Below, one piece after another: positions 1-63,100 of a stretch of 64,000 bases of DNA. A model generated the notes under the pieces. The model did no database searches. It saw only the letters and a program-made list of their open reading frames with translations, and had not been told where the DNA came from. The stretch covers positions 1 to 64,000 of IMG/VR virus record IMGVR_UViG_3300012964_000004; one strand, written 5' to 3'. Positions within the stretch are counted from its first letter, which is position 1. Every line of letters starts with the position of its first letter. Source of the DNA: a virus. The translations under genes were made by a program, and so were the position numbers.

Positions 1-2
1 CC

Positions 3-3000
3 CGTGGAGGCGGATGGGAAATTACTATCGAGAGCATGGATGAGGCCATATCCGCCAAGGTGAGTGCCGTGCTCAGCATGGATGCGGACAATCGCTTCAT
101 CCTGACGGTCAGCAAAACTGAGGAAGGGTTCGATGCACTCAGTCGGCAACGTCTGGAACGTTGGGCGCGGGACATGGGTGTCAATCGATTGGTCATTGAG
201 AACAAGACCATCAACCTGGATAAGATTGTAGATGCGCCTCGTGTTGAACCTCTGCTGAGCGGCAGTGGCATACTGGGTAGCACCACTTGGTTGGCCGATC
301 AGCATGGTCACTTGCAAGCTATCCTGCGAGCTTTTCCTGGCGCCAACGTCACTACTTCCATTCATGAGCCATTCCATGCTATCGAAGCTCTGCTGCGAGA
401 GCATGTACCAGAGGCCGCTCGCGTGCTGGATGACTGGGCAGATACAACTCTGCTGGCGATGAAAGAGAAGGACAGCCGAATGTGGAAGCAGATCTATCAA
501 AATCTGCCCCAAGAAGCTGCGCGTAGAGAAGTCAAAGCCCGAGCATTCGAGAAATACATCATCACTGCAACTGCGCCCAACAAAGAAGTGGGCAAAATCT
601 TCAAGGCAATCCGCAGTTATCTGGTCAACTTCTATCGTCTGATGAAGGACTATTTCGATGGCATTTACCTGACGCCTGAAGTGCGCAAGATCTTTGATCA
701 GATGGTAGGAGATGGTTGGAAAAAGAGCAAGGCCGACACTCTGCCTAAGCCTCCGCCGACCAAACCTAAACCGCCAGTAACTCCACCCACGCCACCGCCT
801 GTGCCTGAAACGGCGGCAGTCAAAGCGGCTAAGCCTGCCAAGGCTGCTAAAGCTGCACCCGCACCTGCACCCCCGCCGCCCAAGACGCCTGAAGAGCGCA
901 CGGCTGAATTCATTGGATTGAAACCAGCCGAGCCAGGAGCACCTCCGCCTGCAGCGGCTGAAAAGAAACCGCTCATGCCGCCGCTGGCCAAGACTAATGT
1001 GCGTGTAGTTCACTTTGCCACACCTGATCTCGAGCGATCTATTCGCAAGGATGGATTGAAGTATGCGCAGCAGGGCACATTGAAAAATGCGGCTAGAATT
1101 TACAAGCGGGCGGAGGATGTCATTCTGGTCAGCGACGATCCCCGCATGGCTGAGAAGGTTGCTTTCGTCTTTGATATTCCAAAGCGGTCTTTGAAATTCC
1201 ACAACAATCCCGAACTCGCTCCTGGAAGATTGCGCAGAGATGCACTGGTGGGTGTATACGATCCCATGGATGCCAAGGGGTTACGCAAAAAACGCTCTGA
1301 AGCTGGCAAGAGATCAGCAGCTAAACGAGCGGAGGCCAAAGCCAAGGCTGGAAAAGTAGACACCAGCGCAGCCGCCAAGACAGAAGTGCAGACAGCCGAA
1401 GAACGCACGGCTGAGTTCATCGGCCTCAAGCCGATCACGCCAGCTAAGAAAGCCAAATCCACTACACCTGCGGCGTTGGCATCCAAACCACCTGCCAAGA
1501 AAGCCAAGCCAAGAAGTGTAGAAGTACCACCTGAACCTGAAGCTCCGCCCATGACTGAGTTCGAGCGTCTATATGGTTTCAAACCTGGGGCGATCGTCAA
1601 GCCCAAACCCGAACCAGGGATAAGACCCAAGCCTGCTAAGCAAGTTGTCAAAAGGACGCCTGAAGAGATCATCGCCACACGGCTAGCAGAAGATGAGATG
1701 GAACGTACAGGTGCATTGTGGAGCCAGGGTGGGTATCTCTATCCGATGCAGAAATTGAAGAAGGACTACAGCTTGGGCGCGACCGCCCAGGATGTGCTCG
1801 ATGATCGGATCAAGAAGGGCAAACGACTGACGATCAATGAAGAGATTGACATGAGCAAGATCCGTGCCAACACTACCGCCTGGGTCAGTGAGAGCGAAGA
1901 TGTGGCAACTAAGTATGCAATAGGAGATGAACCTGTCGATCGAGTGCTCTATGCCAACTACCGCATCTTAGCCAAGGATGAGCGTGGCGGCTTGCTGATC
2001 CATTACTCGGTCAATCCACCACAGTTGCAGAGTGAATTAGCTCCCCCACCTGCCAGTGTGGAAGAACTGATAGAGGAAACACCCAAACCTGTTACCAAAG
2101 CTGTCGTTCCTTATCAGAAAGCTCTGTCTGTCACTGAGCGCAGACGCATGGATGCAGTCAGCAACGTGCTCGTAGATGAATTGCGCATCAAGGAGTCGTC
2201 AGGCCAGCCATTTTATACCAGCTTGAAAACTCTGCGAGAAGATGTTCGTAAAGCATTCACAGGTGAGACTATTGTCCCAACTGTCAAATTGCGCCGCGTA
2301 GCTGGCAAGAGGAAGAAAGTTGTACCTACTGAAAAAGAAATTGATGACGTTCTAGCTTCCATGGGTTTGGATACAGTTGAAAAACTGGCGGCTGCGAATA
2401 GGAAGATGGTTGAGAAATACGTCGAGAAGCCCTGCCAGCCGCTGGTGCGCAAGTTGCTCAAAGAAGGTCACATTCCGTATGCTTCCAACGCCTACGGCCC
2501 AGGCTGGAAGGGCGTATGGTATTACAAGAAGGGCATCAAGCGTGTGCCTGATCTGGGCAACGCCGACCCCGCCATAGGCTTCGCACCTTTGGAAGATTTG
2601 TCCTATCTCAACAAGGCACTCAAAGCTAAGAAGAAACCCAAGCCTGCCAAATTCGATCCCAATCTGGCCACTGTCCCAGGCAAGGTGAAATACAGACCTC
2701 GTGGAGCCGATCTCATGCTTTATCCTGATTTTGAGATTGCCAAGCGGGATCTGGCACTGCTTCGTTTTGGTGAGGATTGGACAAAGATGCCTGACGATCT
2801 GGTGGTTCGGCAACTCAAGATCCAATTCAATCTTGGCGATGACGCAGATGTGATGCTGAACAATGCCGAGGTTATCCAGAAATATGTGGAAGAACCTGCT
2901 CGCCCACTGGTCGAGAAGTTATTGAAGGATGGTTATCGTGTCACTAACGCCAATGCTTATGGTATTGGTAAGAAAGGTGTGTATTGGATTGATAATGCAG

Positions 3001-6000
3001 GTGTGGCTCAATTCACCGAATTACCTGATCTCAATTATCTCAGAGGTAATGCACTCTTCCAAGAAGTGGGTAGGTACAACACCCTGGCGGATCTGCTGAG
3101 TGGCCCACCCAACGAAATACAGGAAGCGCTGCTGGAATTGCTGCACGTGAACAGCGAGCGTGAGATGCTCACTAAGCTGGCGGATCTGGAGCCTGTTATT
3201 GATGATCTCTCATTCAAAATTGAAAGAGCGAATTACAAGTTGCTGTTCAAGGATTTCAATTCTGCTGAGCGGGAGGCCATCCAATTTATTGTGGACAATT
3301 ACATTCCAAGTTCGTACATTCTGCGGACGGGAGTTCCGACAAAGCCAGTCCAAAAATACATTCAGCATCGCCGTAATGCTGCGAATGAGGCTTTTGATTT
3401 CTTTGCAGTAGAGTCCATCGATATGGATGCAATTACCGACCCCAACCAATTCTTCGATGTTTTCAGACAAGGTGTAGAGAACGTTTGGAATTCGCTGCAG
3501 GGAGGTGCTCGTCCTGAGCCGAGGAGATTTAGTAGTTATGTTATGGAAATCTTGGAGCAGCGTGGTTTCGTTCCAGAAGAAATGTTGAAACTCATGTGGG
3601 GTGAACAAGCGGGCAAGCTCTTGGCAGGGGGACGCGAATTTCGCGTGATCATCTCACCTGATACTCCCGAGTTCAACAGTTTTATCAATGGCAGCAAAGT
3701 CATGGACTCGACAGGTCGAATAGTTCCAATGTATCATGCCACCCCGCGTAATTTCCGCAGTTTCTTGGTCACAGAAGATGGTGGCTACCATTTTGGTGAA
3801 TATCTCACCTCCATGGATAAGGCGCAATTCAATCCTGAGTGGTACGTGCATGGTTATTGGCTGGCAGTCAAAAATCCGATTGATATGCTTGATAGAGGCA
3901 GTTGGGGCATCCGTGCCCTGACCGAGGGCATGGCAGACGCTAAGGTTATTACTCGTGAAGTTGCAGACAAGCTACAGTTGGAAGCCTATCGCATCGCAGA
4001 CGAATACAGCCTATTGCTTCAGTTGATGAGAAAGAATACGACTGAGCCGCTGACCCGAGAAGAGGCCATCAGGATCGTCGGAGAGATGCACGATACCTTC
4101 CCAGAGGAATTGAAGAATGGCAACTTTGGTGTTGACGAACTCATGGCCACTTGGGACTACAACTTGGCGTATCAAAATAGCAGTGGCCCAACTTGGAGGG
4201 CAGTCAATATTGGCAATCGATTTGGAACCAGCAGCATCGTGTCAAAAATGAAGAGCATGGGATACGATGGTATCCACTACATCAACAATTTTGAGAACGC
4301 AGGTTCTAATTGCTGGATGGTTTTCGATCCAACCAACATCAAACGCATTGATAATTATGGAACATACGATCAAGCTAACTCAGACATTCTATTCCAAGCT
4401 GTTGACAGACGCATCACCAACGCGGAGGACAAGATAAAAGGTAGCCGATTTATGCTGGACGTGTGGACAGACAGTGTGAATGTGCTCGTCGATAACGTCC
4501 ACAATCTGTACATCGATCCGCGCACTGGTTTTCTCAATGCTGTCGCCATGGTTGAATTGCCAGAAACTTTGACTAAGCCCAACACTGCATATCTAATCGG
4601 TAATGGATTTGATTACATCTCGCGCAACTTTGGCGATGAGGCTGCGAACAGTTATCTCAATGCCCTATCTGAAGCCATGCGCGACTCGGGTCTGCCAGTG
4701 GAGGATTTCTTCCACATGGGCGGCGCTCGTTTCGTAGTGCAACTGGGTGATCCCGAGGAACTCAACCCACTTTTGGAAGCATTAGATGAAGTTCCTGCTT
4801 TCAGGCTGACAGACACCAGTGGCAAAGAATGGGAAGTTACGCTGAACGTCAGTCATTCGGATGTGCTACCCAGGAGCCAAGTAGAAACTCAATTCTATCA
4901 AGCACAGAAGCTCTCCGAACAAATCCGCGCCCAGGCTTATCAAGACTGGCTATTGAAAAATGGTGAAGTCTCCCGCTTTGCCAGCACCTATGACGCGCTG
5001 GACGGCGCAGATGAAATTGGTGCTGAGATTGCAACCCATCCATACATCAGACCAGTTGAAGAAGATCTAGAGCGCAAGAACATCCGCCCGATCGAAGCGC
5101 TCTTCCAGACAGCCGATGGAGCCAGGGTGGAAGATCAAATTGACGAGGCCTGGAGAGCCTTCACTCAAGCGCCCATCTTCACCCAAGGCAATCAGCAAGT
5201 CAGTTTGGTGGATTTCTGGGGCGTGCTATTCGGGGATGCTGAGACTATGTGGAAAGCTGGGCCGCGTGGGTTCGGCAACATAGCTGAGCGTTGGGCAGAG
5301 GATCTGCGTGTCCAAGGTCTGGTTGAGCAGGCTGAAGTGTTCAACTCGATTGCAAATTTGGCACGCAACTTTGAAGAGTATGTGGCCAGCAAAACCATTA
5401 CTCTTGATAAGATCATCCCACCGCCACTAGGCATCTGGCGCTCTGATCCAGGTTTGCGTATGTGGGTCTCCAATATGTATGGTGTTGGTTCTGAATGGAT
5501 GAAAGCTAGGAAATTACTCGAACGATGGAAGGACGATTTCAGCCGCGAGGTCTTGGAGTCACCTTATGCCGATCTGAAACTCAGTCAGGAAATGGACGAT
5601 GTTCTGACTGAGGTTGGTCGCAGGGGCGCCAAGCTCAAACAAGATATAAAGCAGGCTGCCAATTATGGTGGAGAGATCAACGGTGTGCGCATCTCGCCCG
5701 CGCATGGTGCAGTGAATGAGACCAACTTCAACATGATCGACTACACGGACTTCAACCGTTTCGATCAACTGATGAAAGACATCGTGCCCTTCTGGATGTA
5801 TCCGATCAAGTCTATTCCCTTCTGGGCTAAGACCATGCTGCAGCACCCGATCTTGGTTTCGTTCTATTACAAGTACCTGCGCTGGACGAAAATTGCTGCT
5901 CGCCAGATGGGAGCTACTACCAGCCGTGGCGAGGAATTACCATCTTTGAAAGGCTACATGCCGCTCCTGCCAGGGTTGTGGTTCAACCCGCTAGCTCCGC

Positions 6001-8447
6001 TATTCTATCGGTATGTATTCCCCAGGGTGACAGAGATACCTGAGTCCGACCCAGACATGGGGCCGCTGCAGCACATCGCCAAATTCTTCTTGGAAGATGC
6101 CAGTCTGTACGGTATCAATATCTCGCCAGTGGTCTCGGCGATCATGCAAGTCTTTCGCGATCCTTACTATCCAAAGACCAATCTAGCGTATGAATACATC
6201 GCCAAGCCTATCTTCCCCATCGAATACATCCCGCCCTTCATGGAGCGCTGGATCTTATCGAAGCTGAAGCAGGTCGCACAGGGCAAGCCTTCTACTCCCA
6301 GTCGCTTCATCGAGGAAGTGGATTGGCGCGACTATATGATTGAGCGTGAAATCCTGATGAATGCGCTGGAAAAACTCAACGCAACCACTGACACAGTGGA
6401 GAAAGAGCGGATTGGCACCGAAGCCTACAGCATTATTATCAAACCTGATCGGGAGAATGATCCGCACTGGATTGAGGCCAGGAACCATTTGGATAACAAT
6501 GATTATTTCCGCAAGATGGCGGGCATCTTCACAGGGTTCTACGTCAAAGAATTCTCGTCTGGGCAGGCTGAACTTCAAGCGCTGCGCGATGAAGTCAATG
6601 GCTTGCGAGCAGCCATCAATGATGAAGTCCAGGCGGCTCTGTTCCTGCCGTACATGAACAGCACGGATATTTACAACTTGTACACCGATCGGCGCTACCA
6701 GACGCCTGATGGTTATATCTGGAATGCCTACACCATGATCAGTTACGTGACCGATGAAGAAGGCCATCCCGCCATTGGTCAGGCGCGGCGCGACATCATC
6801 GCCCAGAAAGCCGCCGAAGATGAAGATACTCAGCAGCGCTATGAAGCTCTGCGGGTAGCTGCTGATCTGCGCGATGAGCGCTTGCGTCAGGTGCCTGTTG
6901 GAGCCGATGAATTGCTTGGCAAGATCTGGGATGAATACTTCGCAGCCGTGGACGAAATTGACCGAGACGATGAAGGCGCTCTTTATCCGCTGGCGCGGAA
7001 GGATTACATAATCGGTTACAAACCCTGGGAGATGTTTGAAGAATATGCGACAAGCAAGTGGTGGCGGGAGATCCGCAGCACCTATCCGAACTACCAGGAT
7101 GGGGAAAGTTGGGACGTTTACCAGTTGCGGTTGGAGGCCTGGTTTGACTCCCTACCCGATCTAGCTCATCATCTTGCGCCCATCTTCGAGACCTCACTGG
7201 CTTACCGTGTCTTTGACAATGAGATCAATGCGGAAGAACGCATGGATCTGGTGCCCGAATTGGTTCAAAAATTGGTCGACCAAACCAACCGCGAAGGCTA
7301 TGATAAATGGGAATTGGCAAATGACACCAGCATTGATGCCATCTGGAAGGCTTATGAAGAACTCTATCTGCGGCCTTACTATGATGCTATCAACGGTAAG
7401 AAGGATCCAGAGCGCAGTCTGGCTGAACTCGAGTTCTTGCAGACACACACTTTTGAGCCGAGCATCAATGAGATCTATAGCTGGATCCAGCAGAAATACA
7501 GACTGGATCGTTTCAGCCACGAACAAATCAGCGCTGACATCCAAGGTTTGACTTTCGCCACGCCTGATGAGATCAGCAATCTAGGCAAGACTGAGATGGA
7601 TAAGACAGCCGAGGAGGTCTGGAATATCTTGGCTTGGGCAGGCCCGCGTTCCAGCCAAAACTTCAAGGATCTGATAGCTGCCTATGAGTCCTTGGGTGGC
7701 TACGACTCGGACATCGATGTGTTCTATGCTATGAAAGGTGAACCTGGGCGCTACCCAGACCCAGAGGATTACTACAACTTCTTGGATCGGATGCGTGAGG
7801 CGGCCGAACTGGTCGGCGCTCATACGCCAACTGCAGAAGAATTGCAGACTGAGATCGATGCCAGGAATTTGAATGATGCCTTTCTCAAACTGGTGGATGC
7901 TGAACTGGGTGCCAACTTCACCCGCAACGTTCTCAACCCATACTTCTCCATGAGTTCAGACGAACGCACAGCTTGGAGAAAACAAAATAAGGAGGAATAT
8001 GCAAAAATTCGTCGATACTATGAGTTGAAAGATGCTTTTGCAGAGCTTCACCCTGAATGGGTGCCTTATTATTACCCAAGCTACATAGCTGCGGCGGCCG
8101 CAGCAGGTGGCGGCGGTGGAACCTACGCAGACTACGGCTTTTCCAACAGATCGATCTCTGCGGAAGAAGCTGCCTTCTGGATCCCAATGGGCAGACGTTC
8201 AACGTTGGAAGCTAGAGATTTGCTGATCAGCAAACTAGGTGCAGGTGGAGTTGTTGGGCGACCTTGGTGGCCTGACTCACTCAGAGCTTTGCTACACCCG
8301 ATTGCAATTCAACAAGTTGAGCAAGCTGCCAAGGGTACAATCCCGTTGCCGAAAGCAACGGTTACTTACTTGAAGAAAGTAGCGACTAAAAATCCTGAGT
8401 ATGCTACGATAATCCGTGACAATTTAGAGTTGGCGACTGGGGAGTGA
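3..8447 (+). CDS. Giant multidomain virion protein, 5'-truncated (zincin, ADP-ribosyltransferase and GGDEF-like domains)
   Basis: The frame is open from base 3. The first ATG is at 36 with only a weak ribosome site, so the gene very probably starts upstream of the window. Residues below count from that ATG. A zincin motif HEPFH lies at 110-114. It is followed by a helical block at 165-225 (FEKYI, then LTPEVRKIFDQM) typical of polyvalent-protein metallopeptidases. Pro/Ala/Lys-rich linkers follow. ART-like segments lie at about 321-411 and 559-658, and a convincing ART-PolyVal domain at 1210-1455 (VPMYHAT, WLAVKNPIDML, GYDGIHY). A degenerate GGDEF-like domain lies at 1490-1580 (DPRTGFLN, MGGARFVV). 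The rest is helical, with a hydrophobic segment near 1910-1990 and an Ala6-Gly5 linker near residue 2690. The place just before the scaffold gene suggests an internal, probably ejected, virion protein that modifies host targets. The domain reading is by eye. Confidence 0.88.
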   Translation, partial: RGGGWEITIESMDEAISAKVSAVLSMDADNRFILTVSKTEEGFDALSRQRLERWARDMGVNRLVIENKTINLDKIVDAPRVEPLLSGSGILGSTTWLADQHGHLQAILRAFPGANVTTSIHEPFHAIEALLREHVPEAARVLDDWADTTLLAMKEKDSRMWKQIYQNLPQEAARREVKARAFEKYIITATAPNKEVGKIFKAIRSYLVNFYRLMKDYFDGIYLTPEVRKIFDQMVGDGWKKSKADTLPKPPPTKPKPPVTPPTPPPVPETAAVKAAKPAKAAKAAPAPAPPPPKTPEERTAEFIGLKPAEPGAPPPAAAEKKPLMPPLAKTNVRVVHFATPDLERSIRKDGLKYAQQGTLKNAARIYKRAEDVILVSDDPRMAEKVAFVFDIPKRSLKFHNNPELAPGRLRRDALVGVYDPMDAKGLRKKRSEAGKRSAAKRAEAKAKAGKVDTSAAAKTEVQTAEERTAEFIGLKPITPAKKAKSTTPAALASKPPAKKAKPRSVEVPPEPEAPPMTEFERLYGFKPGAIVKPKPEPGIRPKPAKQVVKRTPEEIIATRLAEDEMERTGALWSQGGYLYPMQKLKKDYSLGATAQDVLDDRIKKGKRLTINEEIDMSKIRANTTAWVSESEDVATKYAIGDEPVDRVLYANYRILAKDERGGLLIHYSVNPPQLQSELAPPPASVEELIEETPKPVTKAVVPYQKALSVTERRRMDAVSNVLVDELRIKESSGQPFYTSLKTLREDVRKAFTGETIVPTVKLRRVAGKRKKVVPTEKEIDDVLASMGLDTVEKLAAANRKMVEKYVEKPCQPLVRKLLKEGHIPYASNAYGPGWKGVWYYKKGIKRVPDLGNADPAIGFAPLEDLSYLNKALKAKKKPKPAKFDPNLATVPGKVKYRPRGADLMLYPDFEIAKRDLALLRFGEDWTKMPDDLVVRQLKIQFNLGDDADVMLNNAEVIQKYVEEPARPLVEKLLKDGYRVTNANAYGIGKKGVYWIDNAGVAQFTELPDLNYLRGNALFQEVGRYNTLADLLSGPPNEIQEALLELLHVNSEREMLTKLADLEPVIDDLSFKIERANYKLLFKDFNSAEREAIQFIVDNYIPSSYILRTGVPTKPVQKYIQHRRNAANEAFDFFAVESIDMDAITDPNQFFDVFRQGVENVWNSLQGGARPEPRRFSSYVMEILEQRGFVPEEMLKLMWGEQAGKLLAGGREFRVIISPDTPEFNSFINGSKVMDSTGRIVPMYHATPRNFRSFLVTEDGGYHFGEYLTSMDKAQFNPEWYVHGYWLAVKNPIDMLDRGSWGIRALTEGMADAKVITREVADKLQLEAYRIADEYSLLLQLMRKNTTEPLTREEAIRIVGEMHDTFPEELKNGNFGVDELMATWDYNLAYQNSSGPTWRAVNIGNRFGTSSIVSKMKSMGYDGIHYINNFENAGSNCWMVFDPTNIKRIDNYGTYDQANSDILFQAVDRRITNAEDKIKGSRFMLDVWTDSVNVLVDNVHNLYIDPRTGFLNAVAMVELPETLTKPNTAYLIGNGFDYISRNFGDEAANSYLNALSEAMRDSGLPVEDFFHMGGARFVVQLGDPEELNPLLEALDEVPAFRLTDTSGKEWEVTLNVSHSDVLPRSQVETQFYQAQKLSEQIRAQAYQDWLLKNGEVSRFASTYDALDGADEIGAEIATHPYIRPVEEDLERKNIRPIEALFQTADGARVEDQIDEAWRAFTQAPIFTQGNQQVSLVDFWGVLFGDAETMWKAGPRGFGNIAERWAEDLRVQGLVEQAEVFNSIANLARNFEEYVASKTITLDKIIPPPLGIWRSDPGLRMWVSNMYGVGSEWMKARKLLERWKDDFSREVLESPYADLKLSQEMDDVLTEVGRRGAKLKQDIKQAANYGGEINGVRISPAHGAVNETNFNMIDYTDFNRFDQLMKDIVPFWMYPIKSIPFWAKTMLQHPILVSFYYKYLRWTKIAARQMGATTSRGEELPSLKGYMPLLPGLWFNPLAPLFYRYVFPRVTEIPESDPDMGPLQHIAKFFLEDASLYGINISPVVSAIMQVFRDPYYPKTNLAYEYIAKPIFPIEYIPPFMERWILSKLKQVAQGKPSTPSRFIEEVDWRDYMIEREILMNALEKLNATTDTVEKERIGTEAYSIIIKPDRENDPHWIEARNHLDNNDYFRKMAGIFTGFYVKEFSSGQAELQALRDEVNGLRAAINDEVQAALFLPYMNSTDIYNLYTDRRYQTPDGYIWNAYTMISYVTDEEGHPAIGQARRDIIAQKAAEDEDTQQRYEALRVAADLRDERLRQVPVGADELLGKIWDEYFAAVDEIDRDDEGALYPLARKDYIIGYKPWEMFEEYATSKWWREIRSTYPNYQDGESWDVYQLRLEAWFDSLPDLAHHLAPIFETSLAYRVFDNEINAEERMDLVPELVQKLVDQTNREGYDKWELANDTSIDAIWKAYEELYLRPYYDAINGKKDPERSLAELEFLQTHTFEPSINEIYSWIQQKYRLDRFSHEQISADIQGLTFATPDEISNLGKTEMDKTAEEVWNILAWAGPRSSQNFKDLIAAYESLGGYDSDIDVFYAMKGEPGRYPDPEDYYNFLDRMREAAELVGAHTPTAEELQTEIDARNLNDAFLKLVDAELGANFTRNVLNPYFSMSSDERTAWRKQNKEEYAKIRRYYELKDAFAELHPEWVPYYYPSYIAAAAAAGGGGGTYADYGFSNRSISAEEAAFWIPMGRRSTLEARDLLISKLGAGGVVGRPWWPDSLRALLHPIAIQQVEQAAKGTIPLPKATVTYLKKVATKNPEYATIIRDNLELATGE

Positions 8448-8500: not shown

Positions 8501-9250
8501 ATGTTCAAGCCTGTTAGATTTGACAAACCTGATACGGGATTGGCTGATGGCGGGGGTGCAGAACCTACGCCATCAGCGCCTTCCCCACAGGGATCGGTTC
8601 CAGTAGGGACGCCTTCCCAGGTTACGCCAGATGCAGGGCCAAGTCTGCAGAAGTTGCAAGAGACACTCGCTCAGCGTGAAAAAGACATCAACAATATCAA
8701 GTCCACGCTGCAACGTCAACAAGCTGAGCAAAAGCGTCTGTGGGACGAAGAGCGTAAGCAATTACAAGAGGATCTGCGCCGAGCGCAGATGGCCAGCCTT
8801 GACGACGATGAAAGGGCTGAGTTTGTAAAAAACCTTGAATTGGAGAATGCAGGTCAGTTGCGGACGCAAGTCCAAGACTATGAACAGCAGATCCAAGAAA
8901 TGAAAGCCAAGGAAAGTTACACTCAATTCTTCATCGATCAAGGCGTGCCCGTCGATAAGCTGGTCAGGAATGATAGTCTGGATGCTCTGGTCAACTCTGG
9001 TTGGTCAGGAATTCAGGCCATCATCAAAGACCAGCAGAAAGAACTTGACATGCTCAAAAATCCCGCTCCCCCTCCTGCCACTTCTCCTACTCCAACCCCT
9101 CAAGTGCGCTCTCCGATTTCCGCCGCTCCTGCACCTGCTGGCACAGGCCCGACCTGGGCAGACCTTATCCAACGATATGGTTCGCAAGAGGAGGTGTACA
9201 GGATGGTGGAGCAAGGGGATCTCCCGCCCTCTATCATTCCAATCTCATAG
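8501..9250 (+). CDS. Putative capsid scaffolding protein
   Basis: 249 aa. A Pro/Gly-rich N-terminus (about 1-45) leads into a long charged coiled coil (about 48-155, rich in Gln, Glu, Lys and Arg). A Pro/Ala-rich linker and a short C-terminal helix (WADLIQRYGSQEEVYRMVEQ) follow. This is the usual composition of phage scaffolds, which line the procapsid and bind the shell through their C-terminus. It lies just upstream of the major capsid gene. AAAAGGAGA precedes the start. The role rests on composition and position, not on a sequence signature. Confidence 0.82.
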   Translation: MFKPVRFDKPDTGLADGGGAEPTPSAPSPQGSVPVGTPSQVTPDAGPSLQKLQETLAQREKDINNIKSTLQRQQAEQKRLWDEERKQLQEDLRRAQMASLDDDERAEFVKNLELENAGQLRTQVQDYEQQIQEMKAKESYTQFFIDQGVPVDKLVRNDSLDALVNSGWSGIQAIIKDQQKELDMLKNPAPPPATSPTPTPQVRSPISAAPAPAGTGPTWADLIQRYGSQEEVYRMVEQGDLPPSIIPIS

Positions 9251-9291: not shown

Positions 9292-10299
9292 ATGGCCGTT
9301 ACAATTACCACCACCACGATGTCAGACGCAATCAAGACCCAATACGAACGGCGTCTGCTCTCTCGGGCGCTCCCACGCTACGTCCATGGACGTTGGGCTA
9401 TGCGTGCCCGCCTTACCAAAAACGGCACCTATGAAGTCCGCAAATATGGCTCTCTATCTGCCGTAACCGCGCAGCTAACCGAAGGCACCACGCCTGCTGA
9501 GACGGCTGCACCAATTCCCACCCTGATCACCATGACGCCTGCGTTCTATGGTGCCTGGATGGGTTTTTCTGATCTTGTGGATCTGGAAGCCTTCGATCCA
9601 ATCTTGTCCGAAATGACCAGTATCCTGGGCGAGCAGTGTGGTCTGTCTGCCGACACGCTAGTCCGCAACGAAATAGTCACAGACTCGACCATCAGCTACT
9701 CAGGTGGTCAATCTGGAGTTGCCACCCTGGACAGCCCTGCCCACGACTTGAGTTACACCGATCTCATCAAGGAATACGCCTATCTCGAAGCCGAAAGTGC
9801 CCTGCCTGTAGATGGTGAGGATTTCATTCTCATCATCCACCCGCACACCTATGCCACGCTCATGCTGGATCCCACATTCGTCAACCTCCTGATCCAGGAG
9901 GCTCCAGCCACAGCGATCCGCAACGGCTACATCGGGCGCCTCTTGCGCATGAAGATCTTCGTGTCATCCAACGTTACCGAGTGGGCGGATGTTGGCGTTG
10001 GCAGTACCACAGATGTGTATGCCGCGATCTTGATCGGTCGTGAGTCGTACTGCATCTTAGGCATGACAGGCTATCCTGAACCCGCTTCGGTTGACAACCA
10101 AGGCCCAGACGGTCGCCCGCTGACGGGCAACAAGATGCGCCCTGTGGAAGTTATTGCGAAGCCCGTTGGTTCGGCTGGCGCTGCTGATCCCCTCAATCAG
10201 CGTGGATCATTGGCTTGGAAGATGAGCCTGACCACCGAAGTTCTGAACAGTGCCTGGATCCGCTGCATCAAACACACCAACGTATTCAGCGATCTGTAA
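9292..10299 (+). CDS. Major capsid protein, N4-gp56 family
   Basis: 335 aa, normal for the family. The N-terminus (TTTTMSDAIKTQYERRLLSR), the LTEGTTPAET stretch near residue 62 and the following TMTPAFYGAWMGFSDLVDLE segment fit N4-gp56-type HK97-fold capsid proteins. No protease is visible nearby and no cleaved delta domain is apparent, since scaffolding is a separate gene. The gene follows the scaffold by 41 bases, with a GGAGAAACTG leader. Confidence 0.93.
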   Translation: MAVTITTTTMSDAIKTQYERRLLSRALPRYVHGRWAMRARLTKNGTYEVRKYGSLSAVTAQLTEGTTPAETAAPIPTLITMTPAFYGAWMGFSDLVDLEAFDPILSEMTSILGEQCGLSADTLVRNEIVTDSTISYSGGQSGVATLDSPAHDLSYTDLIKEYAYLEAESALPVDGEDFILIIHPHTYATLMLDPTFVNLLIQEAPATAIRNGYIGRLLRMKIFVSSNVTEWADVGVGSTTDVYAAILIGRESYCILGMTGYPEPASVDNQGPDGRPLTGNKMRPVEVIAKPVGSAGAADPLNQRGSLAWKMSLTTEVLNSAWIRCIKHTNVFSDL

Positions 10300-19615: not shown

Positions 19616-20174
19616 GACATTGTTCAGCAGCGGCGATCGCCAAGCCGAGTGAGTCGGCCGCGTTCGGGTTCAGATTGATCCAGATGTCCTTGCCAGTTTT
19701 ATTGGCACTGCCAAATGCCAGTTTCCTGGCGGTGTTTGGCTGCATATACTTGGTATCGCCATAGTGCTGAACAAACCCATGAGCAAATCCGAAGCGGATT
19801 TGCTCTAATAAAGGTTGACCGACTCTCTCACTGTAAGCAGGCCCTTCCACTCGCACCACATATTTCAATCCCATCTTGAAAATTGCCTGAAGCTGCCAGT
19901 CAGCTTTGATCAGTGAAGAAGCAAGTGCAAATGCTTCGAGACCTGGGAAGTGCAGGAGTTTGGGCAGTGATCCCCACAGGACATAGACCCAGGTCTCGTG
20001 TAATATCGTAATGCCAAAGTGAATGCCAGGATCCACACCAATGCACACCATGCCAGATAGTTCTGGGATGAGATCTGCATCCATGCGGACTAATTGAAAT
20101 TGAAACGGATCTAGTTCACATTTCTGTTTCTTCTTCGGATCGAACTGGATTGTTTCCCAATACTTTTCTAGCAT
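19602..20174 (-). CDS. RuvC-like Holliday-junction resolvase
   Basis: 190 aa. The RNase H-like fold is marked by CIGVDPG (D48), VRVEGPAYSE (E110) and NAADSLGLAIAAAEQ (D174). These match the D, E and last D of RuvC-type resolvases, which cut four-way junctions. The acidic residue usually three before the last Asp is Asn here (N171). The start has AGAGG eight bases ahead and lies inside the RecA-like gene (59-base overlap). It probably trims branched recombination or packaging intermediates. It is the last gene of the replication operon. Confidence 0.85.
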   Translation of the reverse strand: MLEKYWETIQFDPKKKQKCELDPFQFQLVRMDADLIPELSGMVCIGVDPGIHFGITILHETWVYVLWGSLPKLLHFPGLEAFALASSLIKADWQLQAIFKMGLKYVVRVEGPAYSERVGQPLLEQIRFGFAHGFVQHYGDTKYMQPNTARKLAFGSANKTGKDIWINLNPNAADSLGLAIAAAEQCLSRS

Positions 20175-21144: not shown

Positions 21145-21145
21145 C

Positions 21146-22349: not shown

Positions 22350-22581
22350 GAGTCACCTCCGTTGGATCATAGAACCACAGGCCTGTGTTGAAAGGCGGGG
22401 GATCTAACAAGGACTTGGGTGTTAGACAATGGCGGACAGGTCTTTGGGTCATTCGATTTAGCTCATGCCTGATTACGACATACTGCCTGCCATCCTCAAT
22501 CATCACACCCTGCATTATTCCTACACCATTTGGCGTTTCAATTTCATCGTTGACTTTGAATTGCTTGATGTTAGCGTTCAT
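22342..22581 (-). CDS. Small unknown protein, SH3-like beta fold suspected
   Basis: 79 aa. The first half is rich in beta strands with VNDEIETPNGVGIMQGVMIE and RQYVVIRH, which could form a small barrel. A Pro-rich end follows. It overlaps the polymerase stop by 4 bases (ATGA) and the UDG-like gene by 8, so translation is probably coupled. No known family is recognised. Confidence 0.75.
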   Translation of the reverse strand: MNANIKQFKVNDEIETPNGVGIMQGVMIEDGRQYVVIRHELNRMTQRPVRHCLTPKSLLDPPPFNTGLWFYDPTEVTHA

Positions 22582-24804: not shown

Positions 24805-24808
24805 ACGC
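24755..24808. repeat. 27-bp tandem duplication spanning a start codon
   Basis: Two units (24755-24781 and 24782-24808) differ at one base. Each contains a start codon of the zinc-ribbon gene on the minus strand, so the duplication adds nine residues in frame and doubles the initiation site. The high identity suggests a recent event. Confidence 0.9.
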
Positions 24809-55336: not shown

Positions 55337-55569
55337 TGGCAAAGAAAAAATGGGCATCGAAGGCCTGGGAGAAGGTCAAGGAAGGTTCGCTCACCAAGAT
55401 GGGTTGGCCAGATCGCAACAAGCTGCTGGCGGCTGCCCGCCGCGATCGAGCAGGCGTCATGCGCAAGTTGAATTTCTTAGCGAATGCCAGTAAGGACGAT
55501 GCTACCAAAGCCAAAGCTCGAGCCATCGCCAATTTCATCAAGAACACGCTCGACAAAGGCGAAGATTGA
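55336..55569 (+). CDS. Small basic helical protein upstream of terminase
   Basis: 77 aa from MAKKKWASKAWEKVKEGSLT. It is helical and basic (RNKLLAAARRDRAGVMRKLN; KAKARAIANFIKNTL). It lies between the DUF6496-like gene and the large terminase, both joined by overlapping stop/start codons. By position it might be a small terminase subunit, but it is short for one and has no clear HTH. Confidence 0.68.
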   Translation: MAKKKWASKAWEKVKEGSLTKMGWPDRNKLLAAARRDRAGVMRKLNFLANASKDDATKAKARAIANFIKNTLDKGED

Positions 55570-57161
55570 TGTTTCCCAGGATTTTCCCTAGGGATAAGAT
55601 CAAGTTGCCCGATGTGGACAACGATGTGAAACCCTTTTCCATTGGCTTTACAAAGTGGGTGGAGAAGCATGGTTTCTTAGTGCGCGAGACTTGGGATGCG
55701 GATACATACAAGTGGGCGGGTGCGGGTTGGTTGCAGCTTCTTCCACATCAGCGAGAAATCCTAGATCTTGCGTTACAAATGCAGGACGGTGTTTTCAAAT
55801 ACAGTACTGTGCTGTTTTCAACCATCAAAAAATCTGGCAAGACAATGTTGGGTGCTGCAGTAGGTAGCTGGTATGCAGAGGTGGCGCCGCCAGGAACGGA
55901 GATCTATGTTATCGCCAATGACCTGGAGTCAGCCGAAGGGCGTGTGATGCGAGACATCAAATACCATGCTGCTCATCGCGGTTACGCTTACACAAAATAT
56001 GAAGTCACCTTGCCGAACGGTACATCCATCAAAGCTCTGGCGCAAAACTACCGCTCCGTCGCTGGCACCCGTCATGCTTTGACTATTTGGGACGAGTTGT
56101 GGGGTATCACTTCTGAATTGACTCGCCGCACCTATGAAGAGATGACACCCATCCCAACCATTCCTTGGTCGTTGCGCTTCATCGCTACTTACGCTGGCTT
56201 CATCAATGAGTCGGATCTGCTATGGGAATTGTATATCAATGGAGTCGGTCGAGATGAACATGAGGATGGGCATGGTAAGCTCTTCTTCGACCAGATCGAC
56301 AAACCCATTTGGGAAAACGGCCGCCAATTCACCTATTGGAACCACGAACCGAACATGCCTTGGCAATCACCTGACTATTATGAAGAGCAGCGCGACTCGC
56401 TGCGCCCTGCAGCTTATTTGCGCTTGCATGAAAATCGTTGGGTAACCACCCATGAAGAATTTATACCCATCGAATGGTGGAGTGCTGCCGAAGTGCACTT
56501 CCCTGACTCGGCTGAACTGTGGAAGGATCATCCCTACGCCAAGTTCCCAGTCTACATGGGCGTAGATGCTGCACCCAAGCGCGACTCCACTTCAGTGGTG
56601 GGCGTTACTTATGATCCGAGCAAAGGTGTAGTCATTGAATTATTCCATCGGATCTGGACGCCAATCAATGTCCAGCTTGATCTGGACGAGACCATGAAAC
56701 AATTCATCATCGACATGACCAAACGCTTCTTGGTAATCAAGATTGGCTATGATCCCTCGCACTTATATCAGCTTATGCTGAACTTGTACAAGGATGGTTT
56801 TCCTGTTTCTGAGTTCACCCAGACAGTGAGCAATATGACTAGAGCGTCACAAAACTTGTATGACCTCTTGAAATTTAGGCGCTTTTACACGTATAAAGAT
56901 GATGAGGCTAGAACACATATTCAAAACACAGTTGCTCAAGCTGAAAGCGGCGGTATGCGCATTGTCAAAATTCAAGGCAGCCCAGGCAGGAAAAAGCCAG
57001 TGGATTATTCCATAGCCCTGGCCATCGCCGCATATTTGGCTGTCCAGGGCGGCGGCATCGATGTCTCCCAACCCTTGACGTTGGAAGCGCCCTTCTCAGA
57101 TTTGACAGCCTGGAAAAATCCAAGCGATCGAATTATTGTACCCTGGCAATTCAGGACTTAG
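55569..57161 (+). CDS. Large terminase subunit (TerL)
   Basis: 530 aa from the ATG that overlaps the previous stop (TGATG). The ATPase has FSTIKKSGKT (Walker A, 83-92) and LTIWDELWG (Walker B, D175 E176). The nuclease domain has YMGVDAAPKRDST, IGYDPSHLYQL and a late PVDYSIALAIAAY with the last acidic residue. It packages DNA into the procapsid by ATP hydrolysis and cuts the concatemer. The portal gene follows nine bases downstream. Confidence 0.97.
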   Translation: MFPRIFPRDKIKLPDVDNDVKPFSIGFTKWVEKHGFLVRETWDADTYKWAGAGWLQLLPHQREILDLALQMQDGVFKYSTVLFSTIKKSGKTMLGAAVGSWYAEVAPPGTEIYVIANDLESAEGRVMRDIKYHAAHRGYAYTKYEVTLPNGTSIKALAQNYRSVAGTRHALTIWDELWGITSELTRRTYEEMTPIPTIPWSLRFIATYAGFINESDLLWELYINGVGRDEHEDGHGKLFFDQIDKPIWENGRQFTYWNHEPNMPWQSPDYYEEQRDSLRPAAYLRLHENRWVTTHEEFIPIEWWSAAEVHFPDSAELWKDHPYAKFPVYMGVDAAPKRDSTSVVGVTYDPSKGVVIELFHRIWTPINVQLDLDETMKQFIIDMTKRFLVIKIGYDPSHLYQLMLNLYKDGFPVSEFTQTVSNMTRASQNLYDLLKFRRFYTYKDDEARTHIQNTVAQAESGGMRIVKIQGSPGRKKPVDYSIALAIAAYLAVQGGGIDVSQPLTLEAPFSDLTAWKNPSDRIIVPWQFRT

Positions 57162-57170: not shown

Positions 57171-59006
57171 ATGGCTCAAGAAAATACTACCCTTATGGAT
57201 GTCCAATTCAATATTGGCCAGGCCATGACATTCTCGGAAGGCTGGCACAAGAACATCAATTTATGGCGCAGGCTGTATGATTTCAATCACTATGACATCG
57301 CGCCTCTAGCTGGTGAGACCCAGTTCAATGATCCTACTTTTACCAACACTGTGGATCTGGCGGTGGCTATCGTCTTGGCCAATCCGCTCACTTGGAAGGC
57401 TACACCTTGGAAACCTACGTCACTGGCAGGCAAGATGTCAGATGCGGCTGAGAAATTCTTGATTGGCACTGAACAGACTAACACTGACCGCAACGAATAC
57501 GATCTCGCCTACGAGATCCTGATGCACTTCGTCCGAGATGGAGGTGCGGTGGTCTATACGTGGTGGGATGAGGACATCGCAGCTTATTCCCGTGGCACTG
57601 AGGAAGTGTTGAACCTCAACGGTGAAGTCGTGAGTGGTATCACCTACGAAGAGTGTCCGCTGCGTATGCAAGTCATTGATCCGCTTTCCATTATGCTGCT
57701 TCCTGGTGGGCGCGGACGTTGGATGGCTATCGTGCGCACTGAAGAGCAGACCCTTTATGATATTCAAAGACGCTTTGGCTCGCTGCCCGCTTCAGTCGCC
57801 CATCTGTCCGATTACCAAACAATGTTGGCTAACAAGGGCACGCTATACGATTACTGGGATATTATTCTCAAACCAGAGGCCAATAGTGACAGGAAAATTC
57901 CTGTTGTGCGTAATGCAGTTTTGTTTGGAACTACTACTGCCACTGAATTCATCCCTGGGTGGGAATTGAAAGAGATGCCCAAATACAATTCCCTGCCCTA
58001 TACGGTTGGATTTTATAAGCCGACCGATCGCCTGAACTCCAAGAAATGGGATGGGATTATCACACCGCTGGTCGGTTCGGTGAGGCAACTGGAAGTCAGC
58101 ATCAATCGCCGCCAGCGTCAAATCGATATTTTCTCATCCATGCCTTTTGTCTCCAAGACGGCCACAGGTCGGGCAGTCAATGTGGATCCTGGTCTGGGCA
58201 AGGTTGTGGCGCTTTCGACTGAGGAAGATTTTGGCTTCCCTGTCTGGCAGGGCAATCCACCCGATGTGGAGCGCCAGATTGATTTCTTGCGCTCCCGCGT
58301 GCAACAGTCAGGTTTTTCAGATGTGTTCTATGGTGCGGGCGCCAGTCAGGTATCTGGTTACGCTTTATCTCAACTGGGCGATCAGAACCGCATTCGTCTC
58401 GAGCAGCCCGTCACCCATCTTGAACGTTTTTACTCATGGTTGGGCAAGAAGATCATTGACATCACCGAGGCCAATGCAGGTCAGAACGCTTTCATACGTG
58501 TGTATGGGCGCGTGCGTGGGGCACCTTTTGCTGGTGCAGTCGAGATCGACGCTCTAAAAGGGTTGCAGATTAGTTGCAAGATCGTGCCTGAGTTCCCGAA
58601 TGAGCGCGTGCGCAACCATGCTATGGCTACCCAGGTGCGTGGCATTCTGTCAGATCATCGCATCATGGAAGATTATTTGGGTGTGCAACAGCCTGATGAT
58701 GAGTTCGATGTGCGCATGACTGAGGATGCTCAGAAACATCCTATAGTCACTGGCTATAACTTGATGCGCAAATTGAGCGAGATGGCAGAAGCTGGTGATA
58801 AAGTAGCGGCTATGACCCTTGTGGCTTTGCAGCAGAGTGGTATGCCAGGGATGCCAGGCCGCCCCAGTGAGCCGCCCAATCCGCAGCAACCCCAGGGAGT
58901 TCCTCAAGCAGGTCGCCCAATGGGTGGCACTATTGGCGGAACTGAAGAGGCATTAGCCAGCGCTGCTCCCACCATGGAGGGAGGCGTATATGGCACAGAA
59001 GTTTAG
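57171..59006 (+). CDS. Portal protein
   Basis: 611 aa, a usual length. The N-terminus has WRRLYDFNHYDIAP, the middle YKPTDRLNSKKWDGIITPLV, and then GAGASQVSGYALSQLGDQNR near residue 390, a region common in portals. The C-terminus is rich in Gly, Pro and Met (GMPGMPGRPSEPPNP). It forms the dodecameric channel through which DNA enters and leaves, and holds the terminase and later the adaptor. It overlaps the next gene by 17 bases. Confidence 0.93.
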   Translation: MAQENTTLMDVQFNIGQAMTFSEGWHKNINLWRRLYDFNHYDIAPLAGETQFNDPTFTNTVDLAVAIVLANPLTWKATPWKPTSLAGKMSDAAEKFLIGTEQTNTDRNEYDLAYEILMHFVRDGGAVVYTWWDEDIAAYSRGTEEVLNLNGEVVSGITYEECPLRMQVIDPLSIMLLPGGRGRWMAIVRTEEQTLYDIQRRFGSLPASVAHLSDYQTMLANKGTLYDYWDIILKPEANSDRKIPVVRNAVLFGTTTATEFIPGWELKEMPKYNSLPYTVGFYKPTDRLNSKKWDGIITPLVGSVRQLEVSINRRQRQIDIFSSMPFVSKTATGRAVNVDPGLGKVVALSTEEDFGFPVWQGNPPDVERQIDFLRSRVQQSGFSDVFYGAGASQVSGYALSQLGDQNRIRLEQPVTHLERFYSWLGKKIIDITEANAGQNAFIRVYGRVRGAPFAGAVEIDALKGLQISCKIVPEFPNERVRNHAMATQVRGILSDHRIMEDYLGVQQPDDEFDVRMTEDAQKHPIVTGYNLMRKLSEMAEAGDKVAAMTLVALQQSGMPGMPGRPSEPPNPQQPQGVPQAGRPMGGTIGGTEEALASAAPTMEGGVYGTEV

Positions 59007-59226: not shown

Positions 59227-60096
59227 ATGGCTCAACCTGTTGGATCTGGGTTGAAGAAACCCAAACCTAAGACGCCAGTTTACACTGTCAAACCTTATCC
59301 CATTCATGGGCAAGGCCCTTATATGCCCAGGGTGGAGACAGTGCCTTATAATCCCTATCCGACTTACAACCAAGGCCCTTACATGCCCAGGGTCGAGATG
59401 GGAGGTAGCCCTTACGCCAATCCCTACTTGACTGCAGTCTACGGTGGCGGTGGAGGTGGAGGTGCTGCAGGCGGAGGCCCTGTCACTTGGTCGCAGGCTT
59501 ATAACTTGGAAGGTGCACCTTCTTGGTGGAAAGGTATGCTGCCCAGTCAATGGACACCTGAGACCGAGTTCGCTGCTATGGTGAATGCGCTGATGCCTTA
59601 TTTGACTATTGAGGATCAGCGTGCGATGGGATCCAGTTTGTCACGCCTCTTCCCAGATGCGTTCGGCAGCTATTCGCCTGAGAAAACTGCTTATCCAACA
59701 CCACCTTCCAGCATCAAGGCGGAACGCGAGTATTATTTCCAATCCCAACAGCGTGCTACAGATCTATTGGGTGCTCTAGACAAAATGAAGGCGGCTTCGG
59801 GTCAAGATGAAAAGAAGTTTGGCCCTGGTTATCAGTATTTGCGCCAGTTGGCTACAACTGTCAAAGAATTTGGCGCTAAGGTTGGCCAAAGCCAGATGTC
59901 CCGCAGACAATATATCAATATGTACTCTGCTTTGGATCCATTGTTAGCTGAGACCAAAGGTGAAGCACTGTCCGCGTATGGCGAGATCGCCCGTGCGCTG
60001 ACTCAACCCTTCATGGGGGCGGGCAAGCTGATCAACGTCTATAAGGATCAATCAGGGAATTGGATCTTTGGAAAGCCAAACACTGGCTGGTTCTGA
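59227..60096 (+). CDS. Unknown virion-region protein with GQGPYMPRVE repeats
   Basis: 289 aa. The N-terminal 70 residues are Pro/Tyr-rich and contain GQGPYMPRVE and NQGPYMPRVE 23 residues apart, with a Gly-rich linker at about 74-85. The rest is helical (ATDLLGALDKMKAASGQDEK; GEIARALTQPFMGAGKLINV). It sits between the portal and a giant gene. It may bind the portal or capsid, but this is not established. Confidence 0.72.
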   Translation: MAQPVGSGLKKPKPKTPVYTVKPYPIHGQGPYMPRVETVPYNPYPTYNQGPYMPRVEMGGSPYANPYLTAVYGGGGGGGAAGGGPVTWSQAYNLEGAPSWWKGMLPSQWTPETEFAAMVNALMPYLTIEDQRAMGSSLSRLFPDAFGSYSPEKTAYPTPPSSIKAEREYYFQSQQRATDLLGALDKMKAASGQDEKKFGPGYQYLRQLATTVKEFGAKVGQSQMSRRQYINMYSALDPLLAETKGEALSAYGEIARALTQPFMGAGKLINVYKDQSGNWIFGKPNTGWF

Positions 60097-60106: not shown

Positions 60107-63100
60107 ATGGAAACCGATAAGGCACCTTTCTGGAAAGACCCCAAATTCAAACGGACGGTCAAACAACTCCAGGCGCTATATTCAGCGCGTCTGGCAGCTA
60201 GACAAGCGGCTCGCAAGTTGTGGCAGCGCTCGAGCAACTATGCTGCGGCCAATCGAATTCCTAATGTGGTCTCATCTGCCCAGTCGCAGGTACAAGCTCA
60301 GCGCAAACCCATCATGGGTATGCCCGATCGGGAGATGGAAATCATCCAGCGCATCCCTACTATCCAGCAGACAGTCACGCAGCCTACTACCAAGACGCCC
60401 CAGGGAGCACCGCCCGTCAGCGTGGATCCGAGCATTATTCAAGGCGCACCCGCTTACTATGATCCACAAACCAATCAAATTACTAACAAACTAACCAATA
60501 CCAAACTATTCAATTTGAATGGTGAGGTGATCCCGACCAATCAAGCAGATGATGGTTCCTGGCTGGTGCCTGATGAAATGCAGAGATTAGGCGTCACGCT
60601 AAACCAAATGACCGAGGCGATTTACACGCCCGATATGTTGGAACAATTCAACTATGTGCCCAGTGCGGATGAAATCATTCCACCCCTGGGTTTCGATGTT
60701 GCTTCCATAGAGGGTGAGAATTTATATTATGATCCGCTCACCCATCGCATCACGACCACGCCGACCCAAGTCCAATATTTCTGGACGCCCGATGGTAATG
60801 AGATTACTCAGCAGCGCTTTGCGGTGGAGCATGGCCGCCTTATTCCCAATCAAGAAGTCAAGCTGGATGCAAATACCCGAGCACTCATCGATGCGATCCT
60901 GACAACGCAAAAAAGCCAAGCTGATGCCACGGCGCTCTTGGTGGAAAGAGGATCGCCTGTTTCTCCAGGTCAGGTAATTCAAGGCAGCAATCAAATCAGC
61001 CAGACAGATTATCAGAATATGTTCAAGCCCTGGGTGAAAGCCACTCAAGAGGCTGAGGTTCTGCGGGTGGGCGAGCAATATAGTGAGACGGGTGAATTGC
61101 TGAAGGAAGGCACAGTCATCTTCACCACACCTGCTACACCTGGGTTGCAATTACCTGCAGGCCTTTCCAATATGTTGGAAACTACACCTTTTGGAAGGCT
61201 GGTCATGTATGTCCCACCTTGGAACCCACTATCTTGGAACCCCAAGACCAAAGCGATTGCACAAGAAGCTTACCGCAAAGTTTTGGATCGGGTGGCTGGT
61301 GGCTTGATCTATTTGTTTTCGGAGTCCAACTGGTGGCTCAAGCAGAAGTTCTTTTCTAACGCTCGTGATATGAAGCGTCAATCTGGCTTTGGGGATTGGT
61401 TGCCATCTGCGGCTGCCACTACTCTGACCGTGGCAGTCGGACTGCCTTGGGCGGCCGTTCACCTCCTCGGCGCCCCCTTTGTTTCCATTTGGGACAAAGA
61501 AAAGGGTGCAGAGTGGCGGACTTTCGGAGAGAAGGTCAAGCGAGAGTGGCAGAACAAGATGTCAGTCATGACCGATCAATTCTTGGAAACCACTCTGTTC
61601 TATCAGGGTTCGCCTTCCTCTGGTCTATCCTTGTCTCCTACTCAATATGATCTCCTCATGGAAAATTATTGGACTGGAATTGAGACAGGAGCGAATCAAA
61701 CTTGGGGCGACTATCTTGGGGAAAGTGGTGTCACGGCTGTAAAGATCAGACAGCACGCCGATCGAATGAATGGCAAGATGACCATCGGTTGGGATTATGT
61801 CCAGCGGGCGCAGCTAGCCTGGAATGAAGGCCGCCAAGAGGAAGCTGTCACGCTCATGACCGAAGGTCTGTCTGACATTCTGGTGTACGGTCTGGACTAT
61901 GCAGCTTTTGGAAACTATGCACGGCACGAGTTTGATCCCAAATGGAAGCCCAACCAAGTGGGCGCTGACGCCTTCTTAGATAAGACCATCCCTGTTTCAT
62001 CCGAAGAATTGGACTGGGTTTACAAATTGGTGGCACTGAACAATGCCGAGAAATTCATGAGCTTGTTTGCTAAATGGGGAACGCCTGAAGAGCAACTCAC
62101 CCTAGCCAAGAATTTGGGGTCAGGCACGAACTATTTGTTCATTCGCCAGCTAGCCATGAATGCGCTTGAGTCTGGCCGAATGCCTACCATTCATGAGATT
62201 TACAATGAGGCCTTTCCTTGGTTGAAGGGCTATGCAGCCAATCCAATGAGCACCAAGCAGATCCGCGAGTTCATTCAGAAGGACTCGATTGCTTTTCATG
62301 ATCGTGCTCGAGAATTGGCACTCATCTCGACTGCCTATGAAAAGCAGGCCAATGCCTGGGGTGATGAAAATGTAGCTGAGAAGGAACGGTTACTTGGATT
62401 GGCACGCAAATTTATGAACGAAGCCAAGAACTTGCTGGATGCAGCTTATGAATTGGATCGCAAAGCTGGTGGATTGGATCCGTTCGCCATGTATTCTTGG
62501 GATGCCTATCCAGAGAAGTACAAGGAGTTCAAGCAGCGGTTGGCCGAAGCTGAGATCCAACTAGGCCGTCCGCCCACGCGCAACGAAATTATCGATGTTG
62601 GCTACCAGTATGCCGATTTTGTTTATGAGGCTTCGGGCGAAGCCATTATTGATGTTTTCAACTTATTGGAGTCTCTCAAAATTGGGAAGATAGCGGGCGA
62701 AGTATCTAAGAATGCGCTCACCGTCGCGCTATCAAAATCCAAAGTTGGCCGCAATCTCACTTCAGCCTGGATGCAGACAGTAGATGACATGATTGAGTCC
62801 CGACGCATTCGCCACATGAAAAATCGCGCTTTCGTCTCCCAAGGTTTCAAACAGCAACAGTGGACGACCAACCTGATAAAGGACATCGCAGATACCAAAC
62901 CGACCAGCAAAGATGAACTTCTGTGGCAGGTGCAGCGAGCAGCCAATCAAATCAATGCAATTTCTTTGGCTAAAAATCCAGAAGAATATCAGCAATTAGT
63001 GCGATCGGCCAGAAACGTTTTACCTGTTACAGTTTCTGAGCGTTCGTTAGCGGATGCTCGCTACGTACTGGGCACGCTGGATGCAGACAAATGGAAAGAT

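What the first reader, a model, noticed from the sequence alone, without database searches (positions are those of the whole stretch)
36..4410. Injected-effector layout: zincin, three ADP-ribosyltransferase-like segments and a peptidase-associated helical block in a virion protein
Seen: HEPFH at residues 110-114; FEKYI plus LTPEVRKIFDQM; ART-like cores at about 321-411, 559-658 and 1210-1455, the last with YHAT, LAVKNPI and GYDGIHY. These match polyvalent-protein zincins and ART-PolyVal, which phages are thought to inject to cleave or modify host proteins. Here they lie in a structural gene rather than an early gene.
Basis: partly seen in the sequence, partly recalled or inferred. Interest (0 to 1): 0.7.

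Follow-up and report, generated by a model that had tools for sequence, protein, structure and literature searches.

The report
Giant phage protein carrying effector domains
A virus of bacteria encodes a 4,842-residue protein beside its head genes that carries a predicted protein-cutting domain, one predicted protein-modifying domain and a decayed signalling domain; it is probably packed in the particle and shot into the host with the DNA, a strategy already proposed for other phages, and here related phages swap these domains in and out of one conserved giant protein.

Summary
The zincin is real: HEPFH and a downstream Glu165 are invariant in a 50-sequence alignment, with a confident AlphaFold core. 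The third ART segment is a real ART-PolyVal domain. The first two 'ART' segments have no statistical support. The 'helical block' is part of the zincin. Thirteen divergent phages, this one included, keep the giant gene between portal and scaffold/capsid genes wherever contigs cover the flanks, with conserved N- and C-terminal cores. The middle is a variable cargo bay: zincin in 6 (plus one relic), ART in 5, neither detected in 5. This is a polyvalent protein (Iyer et al. 2017), in which MPTase+ART+GGDEF combinations are already described. Virion packaging and injection are inferred from gene position and analogy, not shown. A late/structural gene is the expected place for an injected protein, not a surprise.

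The parts
36..8447 (+). C-terminal 2,803 codons of the giant ORF; the full protein (4,842 aa) starts at contig position 60107 and crosses the contig join
   Evidence: 36% identity over 2,291 columns with L015 runs unbroken across the join
60107..64000 (+). N-terminal part of the same giant gene (continues to contig end 66311); includes the conserved N-core from about 62204
312..722 (+). zincin metallopeptidase domain (residues 93-229; full 2132-2268), including the LPD1-like helical block at 522-704
   Evidence: leave-out profile 78.8 bits; alignment A7; AlphaFold pLDDT 84-95 over the core; LPD1 weak, E 0.012
363..377 (+). HEPFH zinc-binding and catalytic motif
   Evidence: invariant H, E, H; lies in model helix 48-64
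528..530 (+). Glu165, predicted third zinc ligand (EVKARAFEKY)
   Evidence: invariant E106 of A7; lies in model helix 100-118
726..1010 (+). Pro/Ala/Lys-rich linker
   Evidence: 29 Pro and 19 Ala in 95 residues
   Evidence: no homologue found, no Pfam, hhalign probability 0.2%, low pLDDT
3663..4415 (+). ART-PolyVal domain (residues 1210-1460), with an insert of about 80 aa between its halves
   Evidence: AlphaFold, mostly pLDDT 70-94
3735..3737 (+). His1234 of YHAT, strand-1 catalytic His position
4266..4268 (+). Asp1411 of GYDG, invariant
   Evidence: invariant D217 in A6
4473..4928 (+). cryptic GGDEF-fold domain; signature decayed to GGARF at 4719-4733
   Evidence: structure match to diguanylate cyclases, Z up to 11.8; intact GGDEF in the same protein family, L016
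5403..8435 (+). conserved C-terminal core of about 1,000 aa, present in all 13 giants
55566..57161 (+). terminase large subunit
   Evidence: PHROG 9, E 3.6e-32
57171..59006 (+). probable portal protein (by position; conserved in relatives)
   Evidence: no family hit
59227..60096 (+). 289-aa conserved gene directly upstream of the giant gene
8501..9250 (+). probable scaffolding protein (by position)
9292..10299 (+). major head protein
   Evidence: PHROG 1357, E 2.3e-41

Best explanation
The gene encodes a giant polyvalent virion protein. Its conserved N- and C-terminal cores are inferred to build it into the procapsid next to the portal and to let it pass into the host with the DNA. Between them sits a variable bay of enzymatic cargo. 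In this phage the cargo is a gluzincin-type metallopeptidase (HEPFH + Glu165), one ART-PolyVal ADP-ribosyltransferase, a GGDEF-fold domain that has lost its catalytic signature, and unassigned segments joined by Pro/Ala/Lys linkers. Inferred action: the protein is made late, packaged, and ejected on infection; the peptidase cuts the protein itself at linkers to free domains, or cuts host proteins; the ART modifies a host protein to favour early infection. Shown here: domain identity, conserved active-site residues of the zincin, gene order, and patchy cargo. Inferred: packaging, ejection, processing, enzyme activity and targets.
For: Zincin: HExxH in 76 of 79 and HExxxH in 3 of 79 homologous domains in phage giants of 1,287-4,381 aa; H, E, H, E invariant in 50; high-confidence core fold. 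ART: leave-out profile 67.5 bits, orthologues over Pfam cut-off, His and Asp conserved. Gene order terminase - portal - 289-aa gene - giant - scaffold - capsid is kept wherever contigs cover it in 13 divergent phages, with two non-detections; capsid gene identified by PHROG. Giants with neither cargo domain detected (L107, L113, L114, L116, L119) keep the cores, so the cores, not the effectors, are the constant part. The zincin family also occurs in BPP-1 Bbp10 and in vir555, next to tail and 'internal virion protein' genes. Literature: N4 vRNAP, a giant ejected protein, carries an HExxH subdomain (PMC12633501); polyvalent proteins are predicted to be packaged and injected (PMC5512222); SPP1 gp7, a MuF protein encoded next to the portal, sits in the capsid (PMC5576092).
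Against: No proteomics: packaging is inferred from synteny. Portal and scaffold are named by position only. The ART strand-2 position is His in my alignment, not the Tyr of the published H-Y-D set, so activity is uncertain. The zincin model gave no match to a solved zincin in Foldseek. The cores have no solved relatives by sequence.
Confidence: 0.75

Rival explanations
1. The zincin is a maturation protease: it cuts the giant protein during head assembly or after ejection and does not target host proteins; only the ART is an effector. (A variant of the best explanation rather than its opposite.)
For: Pro/Ala/Lys linker follows the zincin; Iyer et al. cite P1 DdrB processing before packaging and propose autoproteolysis (PMC5512222); zincin is present in giants without a detected ART, e.g. 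L108, L115.
Against: Five related giants, up to 3,368 aa, have no detected zincin, so cutting by it is not required for the core function; N4 vRNAP is reported to be packaged uncut despite its MPTase domain.
Confidence: 0.45
2. The cargo is decaying: the domains are retained folds with little or no enzymatic activity, serving as bulk or binding modules.
For: GGDEF signature is GGARF here and GDARF in L015, with the acidic signature residues lost here; L109 keeps the zincin helical block without HExxH; ART strand-2 aromatic is His here.
Against: The zincin residues are kept in this phage, its relatives and 76 of 79 homologues; the ART His and Asp are kept.
Confidence: 0.15
3. The giant is an N4-type virion RNA polymerase with an HExxH C-terminal part.
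For: Capsid protein is distantly related to those of N4-like podoviruses (StenR_269, PunP_Y3); N4 vRNAP carries an HExxH subdomain.
Against: No tblastn match of the N-terminal 2,069 aa to any of 50,697 phage records, no RNA polymerase Pfam or PHROG, no R...K...YG motif, no PDB relative of the N-core.
Confidence: 0.07
4. The protein is not packaged: it acts in the infected cell during head assembly as a giant scaffold or processing factor.
For: No direct evidence of packaging; it is encoded next to the scaffold gene.
Against: ART-PolyVal and zincin domains of this kind occur in elements that are predicted to deliver protein with DNA (PMC5512222); the zincin family is encoded beside internal virion and tail genes in other phages.
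Confidence: 0.12

Closest known systems
Polyvalent proteins (Iyer et al. 2017, PMC5512222), including the Acetonema longum prophage protein with GGDEF, SWI2/SNF2, DNA adenine methyltransferase, MPTase and ART
   Same: Zincin MPTase, ART-PolyVal and GGDEF domains in one giant phage-encoded polypeptide; predicted packaging and injection.
   Different: Here the GGDEF is decayed, no SNF2 or methyltransferase domain was detected in the giant, and the domains sit between two conserved cores in the portal-scaffold interval of a distinct phage group.
N4 virion RNA polymerase gp50 (PMC12633501)
   Same: Giant protein with an HExxH subdomain and a large C-terminal region (C2, about 1,100 aa, mostly helical in N4); carried in the particle and ejected in N4.
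   Different: No polymerase detected; 4,842 versus 3,500 aa; different gene position (StenR_269, with an annotated vRNAP, has it after the tail genes); no sequence match.
MuF proteins and MuF toxins (SPP1 gp7; EFV toxin, an ART; PMC5576092)
   Same: Head-module gene just downstream of portal, can carry an ART effector.
   Different: No MuF domain detected; MuF proteins are much smaller.
Bordetella phage BPP-1 Bbp10 and Caulobacter phage Jess A 'lysis protein' (PHROG 9880 group)
   Same: Same zincin domain family, 29-30% identity; Jess A also has an ART-like YHGT segment upstream of it.
   Different: About 2,050 aa, encoded beside tail genes; their C-terminal region does not match this one.

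Membership tests
Polyvalent-protein zincin-like MPTase | HExxH in one helix and a Glu in a following helix | tested here: met
   HEPFH and Glu165, invariant in 50 sequences; both in predicted helices
Polyvalent-protein zincin-like MPTase | core of a three-stranded sheet with an N-terminal helix, then the two catalytic helices | tested here: inconclusive
   Two confident strands and the two helices predicted; no solved zincin returned by Foldseek/VIA for the whole 611-aa model
ART-PolyVal (PF18760) | profile match over the curated cut-off (31.2 bits) | tested here: inconclusive
   Window 22-23 bits, below cut-off; orthologues L003, L004 and L008 over cut-off; own leave-out profile 67.5 bits
ART-PolyVal (PF18760) | active-site His in strand 1 | tested here: met
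   YHAT aligned with YHGT of relatives; His40 of the model in strand 38-42
ART-PolyVal (PF18760) | active-site Tyr in strand 2 | tested here: inconclusive
   Aligned residue is His (YHFG); relatives have Phe, Tyr, Trp or His there; a Tyr lies four residues on
ART-PolyVal (PF18760) | active-site Asp in strand 5 | tested here: met
   Asp of GYDG invariant in A6, immediately before model strand 218-222
ART-PolyVal (PF18760) | ADP-ribosyltransferase activity | not testable with these tools
   needs an assay
GGDEF diguanylate cyclase domain | GGDEF fold | tested here: met
   Top listed structure matches are GGDEF domains, Z up to 11.8, 3.2 A over 124 residues
GGDEF diguanylate cyclase domain | GG[DE]EF catalytic signature | tested here: not met
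   GGARF here, GDARF in L015; intact GGDEF in L016. So an active cyclase is not claimed
Phage polyvalent protein | several unrelated enzymatic domains in one polypeptide of a portal-terminase phage | tested here: met
   zincin + ART + GGDEF fold; terminase and major head protein in the same genome
Phage polyvalent protein | packaged and delivered with the DNA | not testable with these tools
   only synteny
N4-type virion RNA polymerase | single-subunit RNA polymerase domain | tested here: inconclusive
   no profile, tblastn or motif match; fold of the N-core not predicted
MuF protein | MuF domain (PF04233/PF06152) | tested here: inconclusive
   no Pfam hit in either part of the giant; divergent MuF3/MuF4 profiles not available here

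The most novel reading that the evidence does not exclude
In this uncultured phage group, a giant protein in the portal-scaffold slot is a dedicated ejection chassis: conserved N- and C-terminal cores do the packaging and ejection, and the stretch between them is a loading bay in which zincin, ART, GGDEF or other domains are gained, lost and reordered as delivered weapons.
Probability: 0.45. Interest if true: 0.6.

Novelty: new member of a known kind. Interest (0 to 1): 0.42.

Why it matters
How phages deliver multi-enzyme proteins is largely predicted, not tested. This group gives natural comparisons: the same giant protein with and without zincin and ART at one invariant locus (e.g. L107 versus L108, sisters on the core tree). 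That separates what is needed for packaging (the cores) from what is carried (the cargo), so packaging signals and effector functions can be tested apart.

Tried and rejected
Exact-pattern search with the C-terminal protein in viral contigs: nothing, solved by going through the capsid gene. Three ARTs: rejected for lack of support; segment 1 has an ART-like order of strands and helices in the model but low confidence, so a very divergent ART is not excluded. Foldseek and VIA on the 611-aa zincin model: no informative PDB match, probably because one small domain sits in a largely disordered model; BFVD gave only weak matches, the best to long phage proteins. Homology of the C-core with the Bbp10 group C-terminus: not found. 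ART alignment A6 was too diverse for a collection scan. C-core search in 84,980 bacterial and archaeal genomes: no relative, so host unknown. PDB profile searches with zincin, ART, N-core and C-core alignments: no credible relative. PF11123 DNA_Packaging_2 in the N-part (E 0.023) and DUF6022 in L015 are below cut-off and not used.

Full report
What was checked. The window begins inside a gene. The ORF 3..8447 (+) is open at the window edge. The virus record is 66,311 bp; its last 123 bp equal its first 123 bp, and the ORF that starts at 60104 (TTG) / 60107 (ATG) runs in the same frame off the contig end and into the window. A relative (L015) aligns without a break across this point (2,291 columns, 36% identity). 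The overlap of 123 bp fits an assembler k-mer closing a circle (own knowledge).

Zincin. HEPFH is at residue 110. A six-sequence alignment and then 50 sequences keep H, E, H and a later E (Glu165) invariant. In 79 homologous domains from IMG/VR giants, 76 have HExxH and 3 HExxxH, a variation also reported for polyvalent MPTases (PMC5512222). A profile built without this phage and its nearest relatives scores 78.8 bits. The AlphaFold core has pLDDT 84-95 with HEPFH and Glu165 in two helices. FEKYI and LTPEVRKIFDQM belong to this domain; Pfam LPD1 matches the stretch weakly.

ART. The third segment is an ART-PolyVal domain with a long insert: 22-23 bits in Pfam here, below cut-off, over cut-off in orthologues, 67.5 bits with a leave-out profile. 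YHAT, GYDG and the FDPTNIK..NYGTYD..ILFQ tail align with the family. The strand-2 residue is His rather than Tyr in my alignment. The first two segments did not match ART in any test; the second is kept in the nearest relatives (L003/L022/L101), the first was found nowhere else.

A missed domain. Residues about 1480-1631 fold like diguanylate cyclases: the listed VIA rows are GGDEF or diguanylate-cyclase entries, Z up to 11.8, although no Pfam profile finds it. The signature is GGARF here and GDARF in L015. In the relative L016 an intact GGDEF domain (Pfam 49.9 bits, cut-off 23.8) follows the ART.

Context. Terminase and major head protein flank the gene, with a probable portal, a 289-aa gene and a probable scaffold between. 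A search with the C-terminal core found further relatives. In 12 relatives plus this phage the order terminase - portal - 289-aa gene - giant - scaffold - capsid is kept wherever the contig covers it, except that the 289-aa gene is not detected in L115 and the scaffold not in L116. In the cultured phages with related capsid proteins (StenR_269, PunP_Y3, API480) portal, scaffold and capsid are nearly contiguous, and in the first two the giant gene lies after the tail genes.

Cargo. Across the 13 giants (2,786-4,842 aa) the C-core is fully conserved and an N-core around residues 700-1400 is recognisable. Between them: intact zincin in this phage, L105, L108, L111, L112, L115; a zincin relic without HExxH in L109; ART in this phage, L105, L111, L112, L122; neither in L107, L113, L114, L116, L119. 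On a C-core tree these states are scattered, with L107 (none) next to L108 (zincin) at 0.99 support. 'None' means no known profile; unknown effectors may be there.

Interpretation. The best reading is an ejected polyvalent virion protein with swappable cargo. The concept, the domain families and even their co-occurrence are published (Iyer et al. 2017). Packaging next to the portal has a precedent in SPP1 gp7 (PMC5576092), and ejection of a giant HExxH-bearing protein in N4 (PMC12633501). That the gene is 'structural' is what the model predicts. Not shown: presence in the particle, ejection, cleavage, ADP-ribosylation, host, target.

Noticed in passing
window 1-123 and contig 66189-66311: Exact 123-bp end overlap: the contig is circular (or terminally redundant), and the linear record splits the largest gene.
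   Followed up: yes
window 4473-4928: Cryptic GGDEF-fold domain with GGARF signature; intact GGDEF in L016 (4651-5253, - strand).
   Followed up: yes
window about 2400-2700 and 2870-3140: Two similar stretches of about 70 residues (KYVEKPCQPLVRKLLKEGH... and KYVEEPARPLVEKLLKDGY...), a duplicated unassigned domain between the second unsupported segment and the ART.
   Followed up: no
L005 3021-4238, L006 200-1417, L007 2324-3541: The major head protein match spans about 220 bp more than in L003/L004 and the ORF starts late, as if an insert interrupts the capsid gene in these contigs; StenR_269 has an annotated intron homing endonuclease gene beside its capsid gene.
   Followed up: no
L109 giant, near residues 1485-1628; L111 1736-1848; L115 1731-1801: Zincin helical block or partial second copy without HExxH: relics of lost peptidase domains.
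   Followed up: partly
L122 giant, residues 1840-2130: Two ART-like repeats with FRGT and YRGT instead of YHGT, i.e. Arg at the strand-1 His position.
   Followed up: no
L053 giant (ORF from 6560), residues 736-1140: Two ART-PolyVal copies upstream of a zincin, with an LPD22 domain at the N-terminus.
   Followed up: no
window 20116-32714, - strand: The opposite-strand module carries RecA, family A DNA polymerase, a DnaB-like helicase, an SNF2-family helicase and a DUF932 protein.
   Followed up: no
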